A DNA stretch of 24,434 nucleotides from positions 1-24,434 of the IMG/VR virus record IMGVR_UViG_3300009149_000265; one strand, given 5' to 3'. A program made the translations under genes and the position numbers. This stretch comes from a virus. Positions 3,849 to 24,434 of the stretch are shown in pieces. Every line of letters starts with the position of its first letter. Position 1 is the first letter of the stretch. Below the pieces are notes generated by a model, which did not search any database, was not told where the DNA came from, and saw only the letters and a list, made by a program, of their open reading frames with translations.

Positions 3849-5612
3849 TTAGGAATTCGTGTCTATCGAGATATCTGTAATATCCACAGTATAAAGTTTA
3901 CCTATCTGATCTTCGTCTACAACAATGTCCCCATCCTGATCCTGTTGATATCTTACGTACAGTACTTCACCGCTGGACAAATCCGGTGTGATATCTATTC
4001 CAGTAACCCCTGTTTCGTAATCTATGTCGCCTGATAGCGTAAGACCGGACACCTCCGACGTGAAGCCTCCCGCCCCGTCGTCTACCCCTACTTGAACCAT
4101 GTCTACAAACACTCTAACAGATCCAGGAAGAACCGGTATGGCTTCCAAAGTCTCACCATATTCATAAAAAGAATCATATGCCAATTGTAGTTCCTTTCGA
4201 ATTTCCATAACTAAATGACAGTAAGATACCTTTGCCAAATTATCTATCAGAGCAACCATATCCGAATAACGTTTATCTGTACCTAAGCTAACAGTCGTTC
4301 CTAAAGTAAAAGCGCCCTCAAAAGCTTCTTCAACGTCTGCTTGCGTCTCCGACAAAGAACTGCCTCTTCTTACTTTAACGTCCAAGGTTGGAATTACGTA
4401 AAGAATCTCAGCATCAACAAAAGAATAGCGAACAGTCATCATTGACAAAGCATAAAGATAATCCGTAAGGGCAGTCTTAAAAGCAGTACTTGGCTCCTGC
4501 CACTCTTGAAGAAGCACGCACAACTTCAACCGATTAAACATATCGTAGTCAGGTGAAGTCTCCTCATTCTCTCCCCACACATTAGCATCAGCAACTCCTG
4601 CATAGTTCTCAATCAAAGTTATAAAGTCCGTTCTAGTTACCGCTCGATCTCCCGTAGCAAATACTCTAGGTGCTTCGTCTCTTATTTCTTCTATGTCCTC
4701 CGCGTCATCCCCACCAAGAAACAAATCAGTATCAGTTGCATCCGACGCATTAGTTACAGAAATACTTGTTATCGCTGCTGGCTCCTGATAAATTCCAGTC
4801 GACGGATTGATGCCCCCCGAATCGTAAATTACACTGTTTATCTGAACTATCTTGTCCGCCTCATATACGTTACCAGCTAATCCAGCAGACTTTATACACT
4901 TCACAACGATTTCCGAGCCTACTGAAGGTGCCATACCGAATACCCCATCGCCAAACGTTACTGATACTGTTTCATTCGTTTCGGTAGTTACTCGATAATG
5001 CTTCGAGGCGCTGCCAGAAGACAAAAACGTATCTACCTTCGTCCACTCAACAGTGTCAACAAAAACGCCCTTACCACTTCCGACAGTATCAAAATTCGTA
5101 TTCTCCACGGTAACTGTATCCAAAATAACAACTTGACTTGCTGTCCCGTCTCCTATTCTTTGAATAGCTACGTACTCTCCTTGAATACCCGTAACCTTTA
5201 CACTCGTAGCTCCAATTGGAATGATTCCAGGAGCAGACACCAAGTACTTCGTACCGTTTACTGTTTGACAAGACGTCCACTGTGTAATAAATATCTTAAA
5301 ATAATGAGCAGCCGTTATAGAAAAAGTCAAATCACCAGTTGCAGACGTTGGTCGCTTAGGAGAGTAGTTCAAAAGTTTAACAATGTTTACGACACTAGAC
5401 TTATTCTTTGCCGTTGCAATATACGACTCCTCCGCCCTTCTTTCTATATAGTACAAGACAAGATTGGCAACATAAGCAAGAAGCTCTATGAGCATTTGAC
5501 CTGTTGCCGACTGATACGTATCCTTCCAAACATCAGATTCCTTAAGCCTGTTCTGTAACTGAGTAACCAAATCATCAAAATTGTAATCAACATAATTTAG
5601 CTCATTGGACAT
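3849..5612 (-). CDS. Baseplate wedge protein, gpJ-like
   Basis: 587 residues, in the range of large baseplate J proteins. The N-terminal ~75 residues (DDLVTQLQNRLKES, MLIELLAYVANLVLYYIERR) are the conserved helical start of this family. The central mark is GGDDAEDIEEIRDEAPRVF at about 298-316, followed by RAVTRTDFITLIENYAGVADA, the usual 'R-A-V-T-x-x-D-(F/Y)' segment. The C-terminal part has extra beta structure. J proteins pair with gpI and a gp25-like protein to form the wedge core that triggers sheath contraction. The gene overlaps the gp25-like gene by 11 bases, with GGGAGG inside the upstream coding sequence. Order gp25-J-(small)-I-fibre matches P2 W-J-I-H with one insertion. Confidence 0.88.
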   Translation of the reverse strand: MSNELNYVDYNFDDLVTQLQNRLKESDVWKDTYQSATGQMLIELLAYVANLVLYYIERRAEESYIATAKNKSSVVNIVKLLNYSPKRPTSATGDLTFSITAAHYFKIFITQWTSCQTVNGTKYLVSAPGIIPIGATSVKVTGIQGEYVAIQRIGDGTASQVVILDTVTVENTNFDTVGSGKGVFVDTVEWTKVDTFLSSGSASKHYRVTTETNETVSVTFGDGVFGMAPSVGSEIVVKCIKSAGLAGNVYEADKIVQINSVIYDSGGINPSTGIYQEPAAITSISVTNASDATDTDLFLGGDDAEDIEEIRDEAPRVFATGDRAVTRTDFITLIENYAGVADANVWGENEETSPDYDMFNRLKLCVLLQEWQEPSTAFKTALTDYLYALSMMTVRYSFVDAEILYVIPTLDVKVRRGSSLSETQADVEEAFEGAFTLGTTVSLGTDKRYSDMVALIDNLAKVSYCHLVMEIRKELQLAYDSFYEYGETLEAIPVLPGSVRVFVDMVQVGVDDGAGGFTSEVSGLTLSGDIDYETGVTGIDITPDLSSGEVLYVRYQQDQDGDIVVDEDQIGKLYTVDITDISIDTNS

Positions 5613-6000
5613 TCTGTCCTCCCTGCTTCATCTCTTGTGAATTGTAAAAAATCTTTGAATACCCTCTAAGTACGTAAGCTATCTTTAAAGTTATAGTACC
5701 GCTATCTGGCTTTTGAAAGTAGTCTACGCTTAAAACAGTCACTCTATTATCCCAGCTCTCTACTACACTTTTAATCTCATCAGCTATAAACTGCTGTAAC
5801 TCTGTTGTCATAGGCTCAAATAGCATCATTCTAATCTTAGAAGCAAAACCGGGTAGCATCACTCGTTCGCCTTGAAACGTTCCTAAAATATTATCAATAG
5901 ACGTATGCACTGCTTCCGCATTGGTAACTATTTTTATTGCCCCTTGCGCGTCTATTGAAAAATCTTCTTGTATATCTGACCATATTACAGAGCCTATCAT
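5602..6000 (-). CDS. Baseplate wedge protein, T4 gp25-like / P2 gpW-like
   Basis: 132 residues, normal for the gp25 lysozyme-like fold family of contractile tails. Visible marks are a short N-terminal beta hairpin region (WSDIQEDFSID), a central helix ending GTFQGERVMLPGFASKIRMM, then LFEP, the conserved core with the family's usual E-P, followed by a helix and two strands. In the family this subunit meets the inner wedge and templates the first sheath ring. AGGAG precedes the ATG and overlaps the spike gene's stop. It is coupled to the gpJ-like gene by an 11-base overlap, as expected for obligate partners. Confidence 0.88.
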   Translation of the reverse strand: MIGSVIWSDIQEDFSIDAQGAIKIVTNAEAVHTSIDNILGTFQGERVMLPGFASKIRMMLFEPMTTELQQFIADEIKSVVESWDNRVTVLSVDYFQKPDSGTITLKIAYVLRGYSKIFYNSQEMKQGGQNVQ

Positions 6001-6007
6001 ATCACTC

Positions 6008-6766
6008 CTATATCTTTAACCACTGTACCCCGTTACTTATTATCTGCTGACTTGCCCACGCATTCGCCAAAACAAAAGACACATCGCCGTCTACCGCTGG
6101 AGGGCAAAGTACCGTATGGCTTCCAGCAGTTAACCTTTTAAACTTGTACATCATTCCCTCGTACGCAGTTGCACTAGGTACTGTAACAGTACCTGAACCA
6201 GAAAGACAAACAAGACCTCCCTTACCTCCCACAGTGCCTGTCGCTATGAACTCAACTGTATGAGATAACGCACCCGTGATCGTCCTCTTCGTAACTAATG
6301 GATCAAGCTTAACGTCCCCCGTGTCCTGAATCTCAACGTACGTTCCCGTTGGATGGTTTATTCTTACCAGATTACTCTCATCATCAATAACTATCTCTGT
6401 ACCGCCCGTGGTCTTCCATACTTTTCGCTTTGGGTAATTTGTCGCCGCAGAAGTAGGTATCCCCAACGTCGCAGTTTGCGCAGCTGCAAAATAAACTGGT
6501 TGATAAACATCGCCTGCTTCAAAGAATACGAACACGTAAGTCCCGATAGAAGGAACAGTAAACGCTCCCATATCCAAGCCCGCTCCCTCGAACAATCCAA
6601 AAGCCGGTACCGCCCAAGGTAGATTTTCTTCTGATAACTCACAAAACATAGGATAAATCCGAATTCTACACTTACCCATCTGATCTGGATCATCATTGTT
6701 GACGATAAGACCTCGATAAAGACCCTCACATTTACTCTTTGCTATGACAAGCCCTGTGCCACCCAT
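6008..6766 (-). CDS. Central tail spike, gp5/gpV-like OB-fold protein with fibre-like C-terminus
   Basis: 252 residues. Residues ~14-100 form an oligonucleotide/oligosaccharide-binding fold typical of gp5 and gpV spikes: YRGLIVNNDDPDQMGKCRIR, LPWAVPAFG, PSIGTYVFVFFEAGD and QPVYF. Residues ~112-155 give the start of the spike helix region (KVWKTTGGTEIVIDDE, HPTGTYVEI). There is no lysozyme domain and no histidine-rich iron-binding tip. Instead the last ~80 residues look like a small fibre-tip domain (VTVPSATAYEGMMYKFKRLT, then a stretch ending SNGVQWLKI). The ATG overlaps the hub gene's TAA by one base with GGAGGG nine bases upstream. It sits next to the hub gene, which should trimerise with it. 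Confidence 0.85.
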   Translation of the reverse strand: MGGTGLVIAKSKCEGLYRGLIVNNDDPDQMGKCRIRIYPMFCELSEENLPWAVPAFGLFEGAGLDMGAFTVPSIGTYVFVFFEAGDVYQPVYFAAAQTATLGIPTSAATNYPKRKVWKTTGGTEIVIDDESNLVRINHPTGTYVEIQDTGDVKLDPLVTKRTITGALSHTVEFIATGTVGGKGGLVCLSGSGTVTVPSATAYEGMMYKFKRLTAGSHTVLCPPAVDGDVSFVLANAWASQQIISNGVQWLKI

Positions 6767-12868: not shown

Positions 12869-14467
12869 TTAGAACGAAAATCCTTTTGCTATTAACTCTT
12901 CAAAGCTCGCTCCTGAGCTAGTGATTATCGCCTGTAGCTGTATATACTCTGCAGCCCGACTTGGCTTTATATACACATCCACATGTAGCTCATTTGAATC
13001 AATTACCGCAGGAGTGTTATTCGACGTATCGCAAACTACCCGATACCCTCTGTCTCCTGACTCGATTTGAAAAGCCCCTTTCGCACTAAGCGTATCCAAA
13101 TACTCTTCAATCAACGCAGTTATTCTAAATCGAGTTATCTGATTGTTCGGCTCAAACGCAAAATAGTACAGCTCGACCGATATCGATTTCTCTAAGACGA
13201 TTAACAATCTTCTAACATTAACTCGATCTAGAGCAGACGCCTTTGTTTGCTCTGTCTTTTGACCCCAGATAACATTACCCTGACCTTTAAAAGATTGCAA
13301 TGGATTAATTCCAGCTGCATACAACGTGTCTCTTTCTCCTTGCGTAAACACTGTAGTTATTCCAAGCACGTTTAGTAACCCTCGATTAAATCCAGCAGGT
13401 GCGTACCAAGGATCCGCGACATAATCATTGTAAGCCAGCTGCCCTCCAACATAACCAGAAGGAGGAACAGTAGCTACGATATCATTGAACTGATCGTATA
13501 CTTTTACCCAAGGTGCATACAACGCACAATAACTAGAATTATAATTCTGCGTGGTAGTCCTCCAAGTTACCATACTAATTACCGAAGATATCTGAGTATA
13601 CGGCATATCAAAAATTGCCAAGCAATCCTTTCTTGCCTCTGCTATTGTCTTCATAGCCCCTTGTACTCCAGTAGATGCGTAGCCACCATTGATTAGTATC
13701 CGAACATCATAGTCATCTGGATTCGTAAAGTTGTTCGTCCAACCCGTCGATACCTCTGCGTAGGGATCCGTTAAAGCACTTCCGTTAGAACCTAATGCTA
13801 AATCCAAAGTAGTAACCTGTTCCTTCGGCATTACCGTGTCTGCCACACTTGTGTTGTCTGCCACAGCAATATAAGCACTGTAGCCATTGATTCTTTCTTC
13901 AAGATTCATCTGCTTACCATAACCATCTATCTTCGTCTTTCTAGATACCTCCCAATCTTCAACGATACTCTCAACACCATCTGCATCAGTTTGGTACACC
14001 TCAATATGAAATGTGTACTCGTCGGCATCCGAATTGGTAACCCGAACACCTAAAAGATTATTCCATGTTCCCGGATCCTTCCCAAAGACTTCAAAGCAAA
14101 TATCCTCTCCGGAAACATCCTGATACGTCTTTGCTGACGCTCCTGCATCGATGGCTGCGTTAGCGTCGACTGCTGCGCTCTGCATTATCTTAACTCCACC
14201 ATACTTCGCACCATTATGAACTCGAAGAGCGTAAAGCTTATTACCATTCTCAAGATACGCCAAGGCACTATAATGAAAATACTGACCAACTGTTGGTTGC
14301 CCATACTCATCCACAAACTGCTTTGGCGTAGTAATTAACATTACGTTATCCACATCCCCTTTAGCAGACCAACCAACAAGTGCCGCGGTTGTAGTTGCTA
14401 AATTTGGAATAAGATTTGATAAATCCTTTTCTTTGACATAAACCCCAGGACTGACGAAAAAGCCCAT
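12869..14467 (-). CDS. Tail sheath protein
   Basis: 532 residues. The start MGFFVSPGVYVKEKDLSNL is the classic sheath N-terminus (S-P-G-V-Y-x-x-E), which swaps between subunits to form the mesh. 'TTTAALVGWSAKGDVDN' and 'PKQFVDEYGQP' follow. The C-terminal domain shows GINPLQSFKGQGNVIWGQKT, ALDRVNVRRLLIVLEKSI and 'FEPNNQITR', the most conserved block of contractile sheaths, then a 'VDVYIKPSRAAEYIQL' strand. The middle (~95-270) is a variable surface insertion. AAGGAGGT precedes the ATG. Tube protein follows and probable neck genes precede. Confidence is very high. Confidence 0.96.
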   Translation of the reverse strand: MGFFVSPGVYVKEKDLSNLIPNLATTTAALVGWSAKGDVDNVMLITTPKQFVDEYGQPTVGQYFHYSALAYLENGNKLYALRVHNGAKYGGVKIMQSAAVDANAAIDAGASAKTYQDVSGEDICFEVFGKDPGTWNNLLGVRVTNSDADEYTFHIEVYQTDADGVESIVEDWEVSRKTKIDGYGKQMNLEERINGYSAYIAVADNTSVADTVMPKEQVTTLDLALGSNGSALTDPYAEVSTGWTNNFTNPDDYDVRILINGGYASTGVQGAMKTIAEARKDCLAIFDMPYTQISSVISMVTWRTTTQNYNSSYCALYAPWVKVYDQFNDIVATVPPSGYVGGQLAYNDYVADPWYAPAGFNRGLLNVLGITTVFTQGERDTLYAAGINPLQSFKGQGNVIWGQKTEQTKASALDRVNVRRLLIVLEKSISVELYYFAFEPNNQITRFRITALIEEYLDTLSAKGAFQIESGDRGYRVVCDTSNNTPAVIDSNELHVDVYIKPSRAAEYIQLQAIITSSGASFEELIAKGFSF

Positions 14468-17530: not shown

Positions 17531-18472
17531 TTACCTCCCTTGCATTGTCCCCATTAAATTCTGTATCCTATCCACCTCTTCGTCATCTATCACTTTGTCT
17601 GCAAGCATATCTTCTAAGTCTCGTATCATCTTCATATAAGTATAGCGATCAAGAAACTTAAAAATTGCATTCTGATCTCCCCACTCTTTAGCTCTTTCCA
17701 CGTCGTGTAGCGCTTCTTCCGGACTAGAAGGCTGTGACTTTCTCTTTCGTATATCCAGCCAACCTTTCTTCATGGCTGCCAATTCTTCGCAATCATCTTC
17801 TATCTCCTGAAGCTTGTCCTTAAGTTTCGATAATAAAACTTGCTTTTGTTCGTCAGGCGCCTCCTCAATTGCCTTTTTTATTACCTCATAATCAATAGTA
17901 TCTCTTTGCAACTCACCGAACGCTAAATCCGCTTTCTGTGAATAATCTCGAACATCATCCGCTAAATGTTGATAGACTTCGTATGGATCAAAGCCAGCAA
18001 CCGCGGTTCCAGGACCTTTCACCCATCTACTTGTCTTTATGTCATATACAGCGTCTGACATCAAATCTTGGTACGGATTAAGCTGCAAGTAAACTTCTAT
18101 TGGATGTTTGCCGATGTAACCGTCGATTACATCTCTGTTATCCTTGAAGTAACGGAAGATAAGCGATTGCCATTCTTCCGGGGTATGATCTTTTGGAAGT
18201 CGGCTTACATCAGGAGTTATATGAATATCAATGTCTGCGTCGTCGCTGTACTGATTTGTTCCAATGCTTCCTACTAATCGCATCTCCTCTGCAGTATCCG
18301 TAAGAGAAAAATCAGACCACTGAGCTAACGTGTCTTTTATCTTACTCAGTACCTTAGGTTGCAAAGTGTAACCTTCCTCGTTGCCCTGCCAAATCTCTTG
18401 ATCCAGTCCGTCTCTTGGGTAATCTATACTGGATTCTACTATCCTCATTGTCCTATCAAGAACGTTGCGCAT
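17531..18472 (-). CDS. Nucleotidyltransferase-fold protein with possible capsid-targeting leader
   Basis: 313 residues. MRLVGSIGTNQYSDDADIDI holds the signature of the DNA polymerase beta-type nucleotidyltransferase fold: G68-S69, then D80-x-D82 as the metal-binding pair; E126 in HPIEVYLQL fits the third carboxylate. SDAVYDIKTSRWVKGP follows, as in other phage members. The C-terminal half is a charged helical region, with no polymerase or tRNA-binding domain seen. Substrate is unknown; family members transfer nucleotides to protein, RNA or small molecules. Residues 1-13 (MRNVLDRTMRIVE, then SS) form an I-x-E leader shared with neighbours. TAGGAG precedes the ATG. It lies between beta-rich unknown and holin-like genes. 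Confidence 0.75.
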   Translation of the reverse strand: MRNVLDRTMRIVESSIDYPRDGLDQEIWQGNEEGYTLQPKVLSKIKDTLAQWSDFSLTDTAEEMRLVGSIGTNQYSDDADIDIHITPDVSRLPKDHTPEEWQSLIFRYFKDNRDVIDGYIGKHPIEVYLQLNPYQDLMSDAVYDIKTSRWVKGPGTAVAGFDPYEVYQHLADDVRDYSQKADLAFGELQRDTIDYEVIKKAIEEAPDEQKQVLLSKLKDKLQEIEDDCEELAAMKKGWLDIRKRKSQPSSPEEALHDVERAKEWGDQNAIFKFLDRYTYMKMIRDLEDMLADKVIDDEEVDRIQNLMGTMQGR

Positions 18473-20329: not shown

Positions 20330-20773
20330 TTAACCCCCTGTGTTTTCTGTATCCATATCTTGAAGAAGTGTTACTTTCTTTCCATCAGCGTCGGACCAAA
20401 ATCCTGCAGACTTACCATCCCAAGCTATAAGTCCGAGAACCTTATCCTGAACCACTCCACCTTTATCCCAAAAAGCTACAACTTTTCTATTCCCCTCTTT
20501 ATAAAGAGGTCTAACTTCTATTGGTAAGTCTGCAAAACGAATGTTAAGAAACTGTTGGACTGCCCCCGGAGCAGAATCGCTTCCACGTAAAACACTATCG
20601 ATTATCTCTAACGCTCTTTTGTTCTTTGGCATTATCTTTTTACCATTCTCTAAAGCCTGTTTAAAATACTTGTCCACCCCAGTCGATGGAAACTTATCCG
20701 TATACTCGCCCAAAGTTCTTAAAAGTTTCTTATACGTGTTCAGGTCTTTCGCCTCGATTAGTACTCTGTGCAT
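20330..20773 (-). CDS. Hypothetical soluble protein, 147 aa, with L-x-E leader
   Basis: Starts MHRVLIE, then AKDLNTYKKLLRTLGEYTDK. The first half is basic and helical; the second is mixed with RPLYKEGNRKVVAFWDKGGV, LGLIAWDGKSAGFWSDADGK and an acidic end (MDTENTGG). No cysteine or membrane segment. The open frame allows a TTG four codons upstream, but that codon overlaps the GGAGG site that sits five bases before ATG 20773, so the ATG is the start. Not recognised. The stop overlaps the next gene's ribosome binding site. The L-I-E-A leader resembles T4 internal protein leaders (F-I-A-E-A). Confidence 0.6.
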   Translation of the reverse strand: MHRVLIEAKDLNTYKKLLRTLGEYTDKFPSTGVDKYFKQALENGKKIMPKNKRALEIIDSVLRGSDSAPGAVQQFLNIRFADLPIEVRPLYKEGNRKVVAFWDKGGVVQDKVLGLIAWDGKSAGFWSDADGKKVTLLQDMDTENTGG

Positions 20774-20777
20774 CTTT

Positions 20778-20784
20778 GCCTCCA
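20778..20784 (-). promoter_or_regulatory. Ribosome binding site that fixes start 20773
   Basis: TGGAGGC, with GGAGG at 20779-20783, is five bases before ATG 20773 and overlaps the alternative TTG at 20785, which rules that start out. Confidence 0.75.
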
Positions 20785-20787
20785 ATT

Positions 20788-21654
20788 TTATTCAACTACA
20801 TCATCTATACTTGCTTTTAAGTTCTTAAAAAATCCCCTGTCGAACGTCTTGCCTACAGGATAAATTACATTCTTTGCAACTCTAACATCCTTATAGACAC
20901 CAATCTCATCTTGAACTTCAGTGTTCGTTAAGTATACCCGCTCAAAAGGCACAAAAGCCATAGTCACTCCGCCTTCGTATACCATGTCAACGCCACTGTA
21001 TTTACTATGGATTCTCGTTGCGACAAGAATCTCGTATTCGTCAAAGACATCAAAAGTGTTTAAGGGCCTCTCTTGGTCAATGGCAGAAATAATCATTTCG
21101 ATACTACCTCTGTCTTCCAAATAATGTCCTCTCGCCCTATTAACTGTACTCTCGATGCCTGCTTGGAGGTCTTTAGAGCTATCTAACCGGAACAGTGTTC
21201 CTTTCGCCAGCGAATAGTGTGCTACATTAAATAGCTGCCGCCATATTGTGGCATGTGCTCGTACCTCTGAGATCGGTGACTTATTCATTAAATTCGTAAG
21301 ACCGCGTTTTAATTTAGTATATAACTTATCCACCTTGTCATCTGAAGTTTCTAATAAAGTGTCAGATAAATCCACTACCATTGTATCCCTATTATATCTC
21401 TCGTCTGTTAAAACCCTTGCTTTAAAATCTGCCCAATACCTTACGGGAACCGTAACCTTCAACTCATTCTCAAGAGCTACTTCATACGAATCTTCATTCT
21501 CATGTACAGTAATCTTCCATTGCTTCTTTTTACCGGCAAGATTCTTTAATATTTGACTGACACTAGAAAATCCATTGGGCAAGTAAGCTATGTTATCACT
21601 ATACGTTGTTTCCTTTAGTATCTGCTGCACTCTATTTACTATATTTACGAACAT
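20788..21654 (-). CDS. Hypothetical protein, 288 aa, with L-x-E leader
   Basis: Starts MFVNIVNRVQQILKE, then TTYSDNIAYLPNGFSSVSQI. The N-terminal third is mixed alpha/beta with KKKQWKITVHENEDSYEVAL; the middle is helical (VDKLYTKLKRGLTNLMNK, EVRAHATIWRQLFNVAHYSL), followed by 'GTLFRLDSS'; the last third is beta-rich (DEYEILVATRI, TMAFVPFERVYLTN, KNVIYPVGKTF). No cysteine, no membrane segment. GGAG precedes the ATG by six bases, inside the end of the preceding gene (10-base overlap). I do not recognise a family. The ILKE-T leader nearly copies that of the 446-residue protein (FLKE-T). Confidence 0.6.
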   Translation of the reverse strand: MFVNIVNRVQQILKETTYSDNIAYLPNGFSSVSQILKNLAGKKKQWKITVHENEDSYEVALENELKVTVPVRYWADFKARVLTDERYNRDTMVVDLSDTLLETSDDKVDKLYTKLKRGLTNLMNKSPISEVRAHATIWRQLFNVAHYSLAKGTLFRLDSSKDLQAGIESTVNRARGHYLEDRGSIEMIISAIDQERPLNTFDVFDEYEILVATRIHSKYSGVDMVYEGGVTMAFVPFERVYLTNTEVQDEIGVYKDVRVAKNVIYPVGKTFDRGFFKNLKASIDDVVE

Positions 21655-24434
21655 ATGATACTCCGCATTAGTTCTTTACTTTCGTTTGAAAGCCATTCGT
21701 CCGGGGCCTCTTTAAACTCTGGTTCCTCCGCCGTTATTATAGACTTAGCAAGCAGTAGCCCGTTAGCCATACCATGCATATAAGGATCGTAATTCCAATT
21801 ACCATCAGCACATTGAACGTCTGTTACCGATTCTAAATCTAAAATTCTATCTTCTAAACTTTTCGGCATTACTGCAACAGCTTCTTTAATTGTTCTTTCA
21901 GAAGTGTCTGGCTTAAACTTCTTGCGTACAGATACCCTACTTAGATCATCTATGCCTATGTCCTTAGCATCCCGTGGTCCGTACCAAGCCTTGACTACCT
22001 CTCTGTTGCCCTGCTCGATAAATGCTATTGCATCTTTCTTGTTTTCGTAACCGACAATAGCTCGTCCATCTGCCCAATGAATATAGAAGCCATGACCATG
22101 TGCTGCAATGTCCGGATAGTCCGCACTCTCTAATTTAGAAATAAATTCTTTCTCCTTAGAGGTTTCCTTTCCTTCTTCTACATCTGTCTCAAATACCGCA
22201 AGTAGTTTGTCAATCAACGCGTCCTGCTCTTTCGAAAAATGCCAACGTACATCCTTCTGCTCATCATACCATTCCCTTGCGGTATTCGTTTTTAGCTCTT
22301 CTGACATTGCGACCCAGTCCGCTATCATCTCTGCAAGGCTCAAGGCATCCATTTTCGTAGCGTCTATTACTATATCTGATTTATCTCTATCGTCTTTACT
22401 TATGTTAGCCTGACTCTTATCTTCTAAGTGAAATTCCGGATGGTGAGCATTCGTAGTTATATGATGAAGCGTTGCTTTGTTAACGTTTGGATCTGCTTCA
22501 TTGTTGCCTACGAATTTTCTCCAACTCAATTCTATATAAGGTGTCCGTTCGGGCTCTTCGAATTTACTTGCATCATGGTTCTCAACCTGAGTCAGCAACG
22601 CCATCTCATCGAACTCTTTAAACTCGGGATTAGCTGTTGCTATCTTCTTTGCTGCCTTCTGAACCAACGCTATATGCTTTCTTGTTCTATCTTCAAAGTG
22701 TTTTTCTTTTTCTTCAGGAGTAGCTTCTTGCTCTTTGCCTTCCGTTGCTTTCTTTACATTATCCTCTGGAGCTTCTTTCTTGTCTGTCTCTTCCTCAGAC
22801 TTCCCTCGTCCTTTCTTAAGAGTTGTCGCTGCTTTCTTTAGCATGCCAAATTCTTTCTTCGTCTTTTCAACTTCATCTGCAATGGCGTTCTTGTAAGTGT
22901 TCTTTAGATACCGCGCAAACGTTGTAGCATAAAATGGAAATGTATCCATCACGAGTTGCGTGTGTTTACAAAAGGCACCATACTGTTTTGGGTTCCGAAC
23001 TTTTGGTGGGCGCATCTCCGGCTTGGTGTACTTCGCTTGCTTCTGTGTTCTTATGTACTGCCCACCATAGTATAAGTCCGCCGGACAGTTGTGTACTATA
23101 ACCCCCGCCTCTAAAAGATAATTTTCGTAGCCCTCTACTGAAAGATCGTAAACCTTTTCGGCTACTTTGTAAATAACCATTCGAACTGCCTTCACCTTAT
23201 GATTGTATAAAGCTTTTTCTTTAGAGTATGACTGCACTTGCTCCACTAGTTCTTTAGAAATTCTATGATGCGATCTATTTCCAGTAGCCTTCTCGTAAGC
23301 AAGTAAGGCTTCTTCTAAACTAGGAAACACAGTTAAAAGTCTTAAGCCATTCTTAGCACGATAATGCTCAAAGTTTTGTTCGGTAATCTCTTTGCCCTCA
23401 TTACGTAATCGAGTAAAAATAGTAAATACCTTTCCTATCTTAGCTCTTACCGGGTAACCGTCGTTACCCTGATCTTTAGTTTTCGCTAAGGTACTCCCAT
23501 GTGCTACCATGTCCCTACGTCTTTGTGAATTCTTTTTCCACCACTTGCGCTTTCTAGTAGCTGAAGAAATGCAAGACTCTTTAGACTGGGATCCTTGCAT
23601 TCTCGCCACTATAAGATCTCTCTTTGTTGCCCACATATCCAAATTGTTCTTACGTATTATCTTATGTCCCTCGGCACTTCGCGTCCATGCAATAATAATC
23701 TCATTTGCTTTCTTCCAAATATCGGGATGCTTCTTTTGACAAGCTAAACCACCCAACCTACTTTTGGCTCTGCTCCACTCAGGATTATCTTTCGCCCGCT
23801 GCTTTGTCGCTGCTACACAATTAGTTCTGTCGACATCCTTAGCATGATAATACCAATGTTGTAAGATACCTTGCCAATCCAAATTGCTTGGAACATTATT
23901 TAAGCCGTTAAAATCTTTATGATGAACGGCAAGTCCTTTCTCAAAACCAGCCTCTACTAACTCTTTTAGCAACTCAACCATCTTTGCCTCATACACCTTC
24001 CCCGCTACCACCCTATGTACCATCTTCCAAGAATACTTCTTTTTCGAGTTCTGCTTAACCTGCAAATACTTTTGACTATACCTACTGTTTGGATTTTGTA
24101 CTCTAAAGTACAAAGGCATCAAGCTATCGTCGATCTGTAAATCTTTCGCCTCTCGATAACTACCATCTCTTAACATAAACTTATGCTCTGGAGTGCACCG
24201 TACTGTCTTACCGCTGTCTAAAGTTACTTCAGTAAGCTGACTAAGAGCTCCAGTAACTCCTTTACAAGTAGCTCTACCTGGAACAAAATCTCCTTTAGTA
24301 TCTACTGAGTAAACCCAAAACTCTTTATCAGTGCCATACTCTTCATAAATTTCTTTAATAGTTAAGGTTCTTCCGTCAAGTAACGGTATCTTAGTGTCTC
24401 CTGTCACGCAACTGCAATACGTCTCCACGTCTAC
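21645..24434 (-). CDS. SWIM zinc finger + DUF5662-like protein interrupted by an intein; 5' end outside window
   Basis: Open to the right edge; the GTG at 24428 is an internal valine. Numbering from it, residues 5-6 (C-S) are N-extein, 7-447 the intein, and the C-extein resumes CPADLYYGGQYIRTQ. Joined, C5-S-C448 and C487-K-H489 form C-x-C ... C-x-H, a SWIM zinc finger, with 'RPPKVRNPKQYGAFCKH' before the last pair. Residues ~510-575 are a charged linker. Residues 585-667 contain VENHDASKF, EPERTPYIELSW and HHITTNAHHPEF, matching the DUF5662 HD-like pattern. The tail has DGNWNYDPYMHGMANG, recurrent in large phages as I recall. Spliced visible length is about 488 residues. Possible roles: nucleic-acid-binding virion protein or hydrolase. 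Confidence 0.8.
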   Translation of the reverse strand, partial: VDVETYCSCVTGDTKIPLLDGRTLTIKEIYEEYGTDKEFWVYSVDTKGDFVPGRATCKGVTGALSQLTEVTLDSGKTVRCTPEHKFMLRDGSYREAKDLQIDDSLMPLYFRVQNPNSRYSQKYLQVKQNSKKKYSWKMVHRVVAGKVYEAKMVELLKELVEAGFEKGLAVHHKDFNGLNNVPSNLDWQGILQHWYYHAKDVDRTNCVAATKQRAKDNPEWSRAKSRLGGLACQKKHPDIWKKANEIIIAWTRSAEGHKIIRKNNLDMWATKRDLIVARMQGSQSKESCISSATRKRKWWKKNSQRRRDMVAHGSTLAKTKDQGNDGYPVRAKIGKVFTIFTRLRNEGKEITEQNFEHYRAKNGLRLLTVFPSLEEALLAYEKATGNRSHHRISKELVEQVQSYSKEKALYNHKVKAVRMVIYKVAEKVYDLSVEGYENYLLEAGVIVHNCPADLYYGGQYIRTQKQAKYTKPEMRPPKVRNPKQYGAFCKHTQLVMDTFPFYATTFARYLKNTYKNAIADEVEKTKKEFGMLKKAATTLKKGRGKSEEETDKKEAPEDNVKKATEGKEQEATPEEKEKHFEDRTRKHIALVQKAAKKIATANPEFKEFDEMALLTQVENHDASKFEEPERTPYIELSWRKFVGNNEADPNVNKATLHHITTNAHHPEFHLEDKSQANISKDDRDKSDIVIDATKMDALSLAEMIADWVAMSEELKTNTAREWYDEQKDVRWHFSKEQDALIDKLLAVFETDVEEGKETSKEKEFISKLESADYPDIAAHGHGFYIHWADGRAIVGYENKKDAIAFIEQGNREVVKAWYGPRDAKDIGIDDLSRVSVRKKFKPDTSERTIKEAVAVMPKSLEDRILDLESVTDVQCADGNWNYDPYMHGMANGLLLAKSIITAEEPEFKEAPDEWLSNESKELMRSIICS
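23088..24410 (-). mobile_element. Intein with HNH homing endonuclease, 441 aa
   Basis: Block A is CVTGDTKIPLLDGRTLTIKE with catalytic Cys1. Block B is VRCTPEHKFMLRDG, with T-x-x-H at host residues 79-82. The C-terminal blocks are VYDLSVEGYENYLLEAGVIV followed by H-N and then Cys+1 of the extein, so penultimate His and terminal Asn are intact. Between them is an HNH endonuclease: GLAVHHKDFNGLNN, SNLDW, then H191/H195 (H169-H170, N177-N178). A basic helical region follows, probably for DNA recognition. All splicing and nuclease signature residues are present, so it should be active. The insert is in frame and its removal restores the zinc finger. Confidence 0.93.

What the first reader, a model, noticed from the sequence alone, without database searches (positions are those of the whole stretch)
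23085..24416. Intein inserted exactly inside the C-x-C of a SWIM zinc finger, using a zinc ligand as its +1 nucleophile
The intein lies between C-S and C of the SWIM motif. The extein Cys at 23085-23087 is both the splicing nucleophile and the second zinc-binding cysteine. The finger therefore cannot form until splicing is complete, and splicing could be sensitive to zinc or redox state. Homing endonucleases often pick conserved codons; here the target would be a codon the phage cannot change without losing the finger. I know of no described phage SWIM intein at this site.
Basis: partly seen in the sequence, partly recalled or inferred. Interest (0 to 1): 0.75.

Follow-up and report, generated by a model that had tools for sequence, protein, structure and literature searches.

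The report
Inteins recurrently invade phage zinc finger
A self-removing protein insert (intein) sits exactly at one of the cysteines predicted to grip zinc in a phage tail-assembly protein, and searching relatives shows that several unrelated inteins, one of them split over two genes, have landed on the metal-gripping cysteines of the same small domain.

Summary
A 441-residue class 1 intein (24410..23088, minus strand) interrupts a C-x-C...C-K-H domain so that extein Cys+1 (23085-23087) is the second presumed zinc ligand. Among 133 distinct intein-free domains, 132 keep that cysteine and all keep C-x-H. The extein is a SWIM-like domain of a head/neck/tail-module protein, distantly related to phage P1 gp25 ("tail stability"). 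Its C-to-C spacing (36-47) exceeds the classical SWIM range, so "SWIM-like" is safer than SWIM. The new result is recurrence. Twelve contigs (8 distinct inteins) carry an intein at this same codon: full-length HNH types, a mini-intein, LAGLIDADG types, and a split intein whose halves flank a GIY-YIG endonuclease gene. A thirteenth contig has a LAGLIDADG intein at the third ligand (C of C-K-H). One origin for all same-site inteins is rejected (AU p=0.009). An 80-85% identical phage has the precise empty site. The ordinary cause suffices: inteins need a conserved C/S/T at +1, and the ligand cysteines are the only conserved ones here. Zinc- or redox-gated splicing is plausible by precedent but untested. 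Two corrections: the precursor keeps a C-x-C made with intein Cys1, and the codon is not absolutely fixed.

The parts
24411..24434 (-). End of N-extein, VDVETYCS; first presumed zinc ligand Cys at 24414-24416 (position -2). Rest of the N-extein is off the contig.
   Evidence: aligned with L005/L147/L149 N-exteins.
23088..24410 (-). Class 1 intein, 441 aa, Cys1...His440-Asn441
   Evidence: Pfam Intein_splicing 8e-25; 42-48% identical to same-site inteins.
24183..24194 (-). Block B TPEH (TxxH) of the intein
23838..23927 (-). HNH-type homing endonuclease core VHHKDFNGLNNVPSNLDWQGILQHWYYHAK
   Evidence: Pfam HNH_3 0.0063, below cut-off; PHROG HNH endonuclease 6e-4; conserved in L005, L147, L149.
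23088..23204 (-). C-terminal splicing blocks, NHKV...VYDLSVEGYENYLLEAGVIVHN
23085..23087 (-). Extein Cys+1: splicing nucleophile and second presumed zinc ligand of C-x-C
   Evidence: 132/133 intein-free homologues have Cys here.
22962..22970 (-). C-K-H: third Cys and His of the SWIM-like domain
   Evidence: 133/133 intein-free homologues have C and H; second intein site in L154.
21645..23087 (-). C-extein, 480 aa: SWIM-like domain, linker, DUF5662 and C-terminal part
   Evidence: Pfam DUF5662 3e-25; PHROG 4315 at 0.0018; homologues.
22200..22706 (-). DUF5662 domain in the C-extein
20330..20785 (-). Conserved syntenic gene downstream of the SWIM-like gene
   Evidence: Found beside it in related loci, intein-bearing and intein-free alike.
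12869..14467 (-). Tail sheath gene of the same module (context)
   Evidence: 55% identical to the L005 sheath; matches annotated sheath loci L001, L057, L058.

Best explanation
This is a homing intein of the ordinary class 1 type that colonised the gene of a gp25-like phage tail-module protein at the codon of the second cysteine of its C-x-C...C-K-H (SWIM-like) metal-binding domain. Shown by sequence: exact position, intact splicing motifs, conservation of the ligand, empty sites, and repeated colonisation of this codon (and once of the third-ligand codon) by inteins of at least two separate lineages with HNH, LAGLIDADG, GIY-YIG-associated or no endonuclease. Inferred: the precursor splices autocatalytically, joining C-S to C-P-A-D and so completing C-x-C. 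The site is favoured because class 1 inteins need C/S/T at +1 and persist at codons the host cannot easily lose, and in this domain the ligand cysteines are the only conserved residues of that kind. A side effect is that the native finger is completed only by splicing, in trans in the split case.
For: Intein motifs and Pfam score. Ligand conservation 132/133, 132/133, 133/133, with no other conserved C/S/T column. Same-site inteins in L005, L147, L149, L217 and L233-235, L269/L274 and L271/L272. Third-ligand intein in L154. Intein tree: 99/98 branch separates two groups, AU p=0.009 against one clade of all same-site inteins. Precise empty site: L272 4005-4291 and 5577-6404 align to L242 1994-2280 and 2279-3114, the gap equalling the intein at 4290-5576. 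Intein-free orthologues with conserved neighbours.
Against: Splicing, homing and metal binding are all unmeasured. The HNH match is below Pfam's cut-off. The window's N-extein is cut at 8 residues. The intein tree rests on 154 columns with long branches. The AlphaFold2 model of the window intein is poor (mean pLDDT 51).
Confidence: 0.86

Rival explanations
1. The ligand-site position is a regulatory device: zinc or oxidation acts on Cys-2, Cys1 and Cys+1 of the precursor and gates splicing, so the tail protein matures only under suitable zinc/redox conditions.
For: Every same-site precursor has Cys-2, Cys1 and Cys+1, and keeps C-x-C with Cys1. Precedents: in Pyrococcus MoaA an N-extein Cys forms a disulfide with Cys1 and blocks splicing; zinc inhibits the DnaB and Prp8 inteins (PMC10663303; PMC7360933).
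Against: The arrangement follows automatically from inserting any Cys1 intein before the second Cys of C-x-C, so it is no sign of selection. Several unrelated inteins share it. The third-ligand intein in L154 has no Cys at -2. No functional data.
Confidence: 0.14
2. The C-x-C...C-K-H domain is not a zinc finger; the cysteines are conserved for another reason, such as disulfides or a different metal.
For: Spacer 36-47; no PDB fold match and no PDB sequence match; the window protein has no Pfam SWIM hit.
Against: Pfam SWIM is the only family matched, in 10 of 45 relatives, and L017 passes its cut-off. BFVD fold hits include phage proteins named SWIM-type. CxC/CxH is invariant and the exceptions are ligand-like residues (Asp, His).
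Confidence: 0.12
3. The intein is a decayed or non-splicing insert, or an assembly artefact, and the tail protein is broken.
For: No expression data; the contig ends 8 residues upstream.
Against: Open frame of 929 codons with all splicing residues; homologous inteins at the same codon in other contigs; conserved gene order.
Confidence: 0.04

Closest known systems
Class 1 inteins of phage genes (terminase, ribonucleotide reductase, portal)
   Same: Cys1, TxxH, His-Asn end, Cys/Ser at +1, embedded homing endonuclease; the window intein groups with phage terminase/portal/RNR inteins.
   Different: Host is a tail-module protein and the +1 residue is a presumed zinc ligand of a SWIM-like domain.
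Pyrococcus abyssi MoaA intein (redox-trapped precursor)
   Same: An N-extein Cys near Cys1 in a metalloprotein; disulfide can block splicing (PMC10663303).
   Different: MoaA is an oxygen-sensitive oxidoreductase; here the neighbouring Cys (-2) is itself a presumed zinc ligand, and no redox effect has been tested.
Mycobacterium DnaB intein inhibited by zinc
   Same: Zinc binding to the catalytic Cys stops splicing (PMC7360933).
   Different: There zinc is bound by intein residues; here extein zinc ligands flank both junctions, and zinc inhibition is only a hypothesis.
'Fractured gene' split inteins with an endonuclease gene between the halves (known from metagenomes; recalled, not read here)
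   Same: L233-235: Int-N ORF, free-standing GIY-YIG ORF, Int-C ORF, back to back.
   Different: Host is the SWIM-like tail protein, so the presumed zinc ligands lie on two polypeptides until trans-splicing.
Phage P1 gp25, 'tail stability' (PHROG 1722)
   Same: Shares the C-x-C...NP..G..CKH domain.
   Different: No intein; long N- and C-terminal parts; no DUF5662.

Membership tests
Class 1 intein | Cys1, block B TxxH, block F Asp, penultimate His, C-terminal Asn, C/S/T at +1 | tested here: met
Class 1 intein | Profile score above curated cut-off | tested here: met
   Intein_splicing 87.9 bits vs 35.8
Class 1 intein | Intein-free alleles at the same site | tested here: met
   Homologous intein-free domains; DNA-level empty site for another intein at this codon, L242
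Class 1 intein | Autocatalytic splicing | not testable with these tools
   Needs expression of precursor
HNH homing endonuclease | HNH core at family score | tested here: inconclusive
   HNH_3 16.6 bits vs cut-off 24.8; PHROG HNH endonuclease 6e-4; core conserved in four inteins
SWIM zinc finger (PF04434) | C-x-C ... C-x-H ligands | tested here: met
   132/133, 132/133, 133/133, 133/133 in intein-free relatives
SWIM zinc finger (PF04434) | 6-25 residues between the Cys pairs (recalled definition) | tested here: not met
   38 in the window, 36-47 in the family
SWIM zinc finger (PF04434) | Pfam score above cut-off | tested here: inconclusive
   L017 25.8 vs 19.6; 10 of 45 relatives at E<=0.01; none for the window C-extein
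SWIM zinc finger (PF04434) | Zinc bound | not testable with these tools
   Needs metal analysis of purified protein
P1 gp25-like tail protein (PHROG 1722/4315) | Sequence match and tail/neck gene neighbourhood | tested here: met
   PHROG 4315 at 0.0018 for the window C-extein; relatives down to 6e-15; neck-to-sheath position in Strep GXN1, SP-15, LIS04; synteny
Split intein (L233-235) | N and C halves on separate ORFs with complementary splicing blocks | tested here: met
   ORFs 4606-5187 and 5896-6546 around GIY-YIG ORF 5188-5895, identical in three contigs; trans-splicing itself not testable

The most novel reading that the evidence does not exclude
Because Cys-2 and Cys+1 are presumed zinc ligands and HINT folding brings both junctions together, zinc could be held in the unspliced precursor by Cys-2/Cys1/Cys+1 with C-K-H, stalling splicing. 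The recurrent inteins would then act as metal- or redox-gated switches for tail assembly, with the split version assembling one zinc site from two proteins.
Probability: 0.13. Interest if true: 0.85.

Novelty: new variant of a known kind. Interest (0 to 1): 0.62.

Why it matters
It identifies a previously unreported (in the library searched) intein hotspot in a phage tail-module protein, where intein chemistry and presumed metal binding share the same cysteine. Several inteins with different endonucleases at one codon, plus one at a second ligand, give a natural comparison set for asking why inteins choose catalytic or ligand residues and whether metal or redox state gates splicing. The split intein supplies a natural case of a presumed zinc site assembled by trans-splicing.

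Tried and rejected
Single-protein search with the window intein in IMG/VR found nothing; the alignment search found 80 inteins, of which only L005 (as L061) is at this site. Foldseek of the L148 model (pLDDT 87) against PDB gave nothing useful. The AlphaFold2 model of the window intein was too poor for a fold search. One search used a pattern containing His-Asn before the Cys, so it is biased to inteins: L270 is a chance match, and L276 (VQHNCPAW) is an intein-free homologue with His for the first Cys, so 'intein scar' versus plain ligand swap cannot be decided. Phage-record searches gave no same-site intein in annotated phages; Bacillus phage SP-15's intein (L004) is in a P-loop protein. Prevalence in the family is not estimated, because scans were capped and partly intein-directed.

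Full report
Observation. The minus-strand ORF that enters the window at 24434 and stops at 21645 begins VDVETYCS, then CVTGDTK, and after 441 residues reads VIVHN|CPADLYYGG. Pfam places a complete intein splicing domain at 8e-25. Cys1, TPEH at residues 73-76, the YDL of block F, His440, Asn441 and Cys+1 are all there. The middle carries an HNH-like core, weakly matched.

The host protein. Joined extein sequence reads CSC-x38-CKH. tblastn and profile scans found this domain in Streptococcus GXN1, Bacillus SP-15, Listeria LIS04, Maribacter, Acinetobacter and Xanthomonas phages and in phage P1 gp25, annotated 'tail stability', and in many IMG/VR contigs. In GXN1, SP-15 and LIS04 the gene lies between neck and sheath genes. 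In the window's closest relatives the downstream genes are conserved whether or not the intein is present, so these are orthologues. PHROG families 1722 (P1 gp25, tail) and 4315 match relatives strongly and the window weakly. The C-extein also has a DUF5662 domain.

Is it a SWIM finger? In 133 distinct intein-free domains the first Cys is kept in 132, the second in 132, the third and the His in 133. Pfam SWIM is the only family matched, in 10 of 45 relatives, above cut-off in L017. The spacer is 36-47 residues, longer than the 6-25 I recall for SWIM. A confident AlphaFold2 model of the intein-free L148 homologue (pLDDT 87) has no PDB match but matches viral proteins, some named SWIM-type. I therefore call it SWIM-like; zinc binding is inferred.

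Recurrence. Same-codon inteins occur in L005 (364 aa), L147 (366) and L149 (369), all related to the window intein at 42-48%. L217 has a 145-aa mini-intein. L269/L274 (410 aa) and L271/L272 (429 aa) have LAGLIDADG inteins. In L233, L234 and L235, identical over 6 kb, the intein is split: one ORF ends with a 95-residue N half after IMCD, the next is a GIY-YIG endonuclease, and the third begins with a 36-residue C half ending SHN|CPSFLYWG. In L154 a 414-aa LAGLIDADG intein lies at the third ligand, GAH|C...VHN|CKH. In total 12 contigs with 8 distinct inteins share the window's site (the window included) and one contig uses the third-ligand site.

Independence. In a tree of splicing domains a 99/98 branch separates the split, LAGLIDADG and third-ligand inteins from the window's group, which includes terminase, portal and RNR inteins. 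Holding all same-site inteins together is rejected (AU p=0.009), while one origin for window, L005, L147, L149 and L217 is not (p=0.51). So the codon was colonised at least twice. Whether L233 and L269/L271 are separate events is not resolved (p=0.20).

Empty site. L272 and the intein-free L242 align at 83% up to L272 4291 and at 81% from 5577; the intein occupies 4290-5576. Within 60 bases upstream of the junction the related L271 copy and L242 are 95% identical. This shows clean, scarless presence/absence at this codon for one of the inteins; for the window intein the empty sites are more distant homologues.

Why there. The only conserved residues in the domain able to serve as +1 nucleophile are the three ligand cysteines, and inteins occupy two of them. 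Requirement for a +1 nucleophile plus persistence at indispensable codons explains this without any regulatory role. The codon is not wholly fixed: L006 has C-D-D and no intein, and L276 has H-N-C.

Zinc and redox. Each same-site precursor retains a C-x-C, because Cys1 takes the place of the second Cys. Published cases show an N-extein Cys forming a disulfide with Cys1 in MoaA (PMC10663303) and zinc blocking DnaB splicing by binding the catalytic Cys (PMC7360933). No paper in the library joins intein, SWIM domain and phage.

Verdict. Real, correctly placed, and broader than reported: a new host site and hotspot for known kinds of intein, with an unresolved and attractive regulatory question.

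Noticed in passing
L272 3334-4005 vs L242 1988-1994: A GIY-YIG endonuclease ORF lies just upstream of the intein-bearing SWIM-like gene in L272 and is missing from the intein-free relative L242, so a second mobile endonuclease entered beside the same gene.
   Followed up: partly
L276 1086-1745: Intein-free homologue with H-N-C in place of C-x-C; could be a ligand swap or the remnant of an intein's His-Asn end (ascertainment-biased).
   Followed up: no
L006 7638-8258: Intein-free homologue with C-D-D (GAC GAC) at the C-x-C: the splicing-site cysteine has been replaced.
   Followed up: partly
L078 (same contig as L149): A second intein in the same phage, 198 aa, in a portal-like gene (RE|CFTGDT...HN|CELCASHP), best segment 52% identical to the window intein.
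   Followed up: no
L004 3674-5293 and 7762-9131: Bacillus phage SP-15 gene 022, annotated hypothetical, holds an unannotated 377-aa intein before a P-loop sequence (GIGLGKST); the terminase large subunit is annotated four genes downstream, so the terminase gene may be fractured.
   Followed up: no
L180 4049-4051: In-frame TGA where relatives have Trp in the SWIM-like gene (KYR*ETV vs KYRWETV): possible TGA recoding.
   Followed up: no
L264 (JAHQJS010000001.1): Close intein-free homologue on a 179 kb contig binned as the archaeon Ca. Borrarchaeum weybense: an archaeal virus or a misbinned phage.
   Followed up: no
window 17531-18472: Tail-module protein with a nucleotidyltransferase-like stretch (VGSIGTNQYSDDADIDIHI), 38-48% identical in several relatives.
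   Followed up: no
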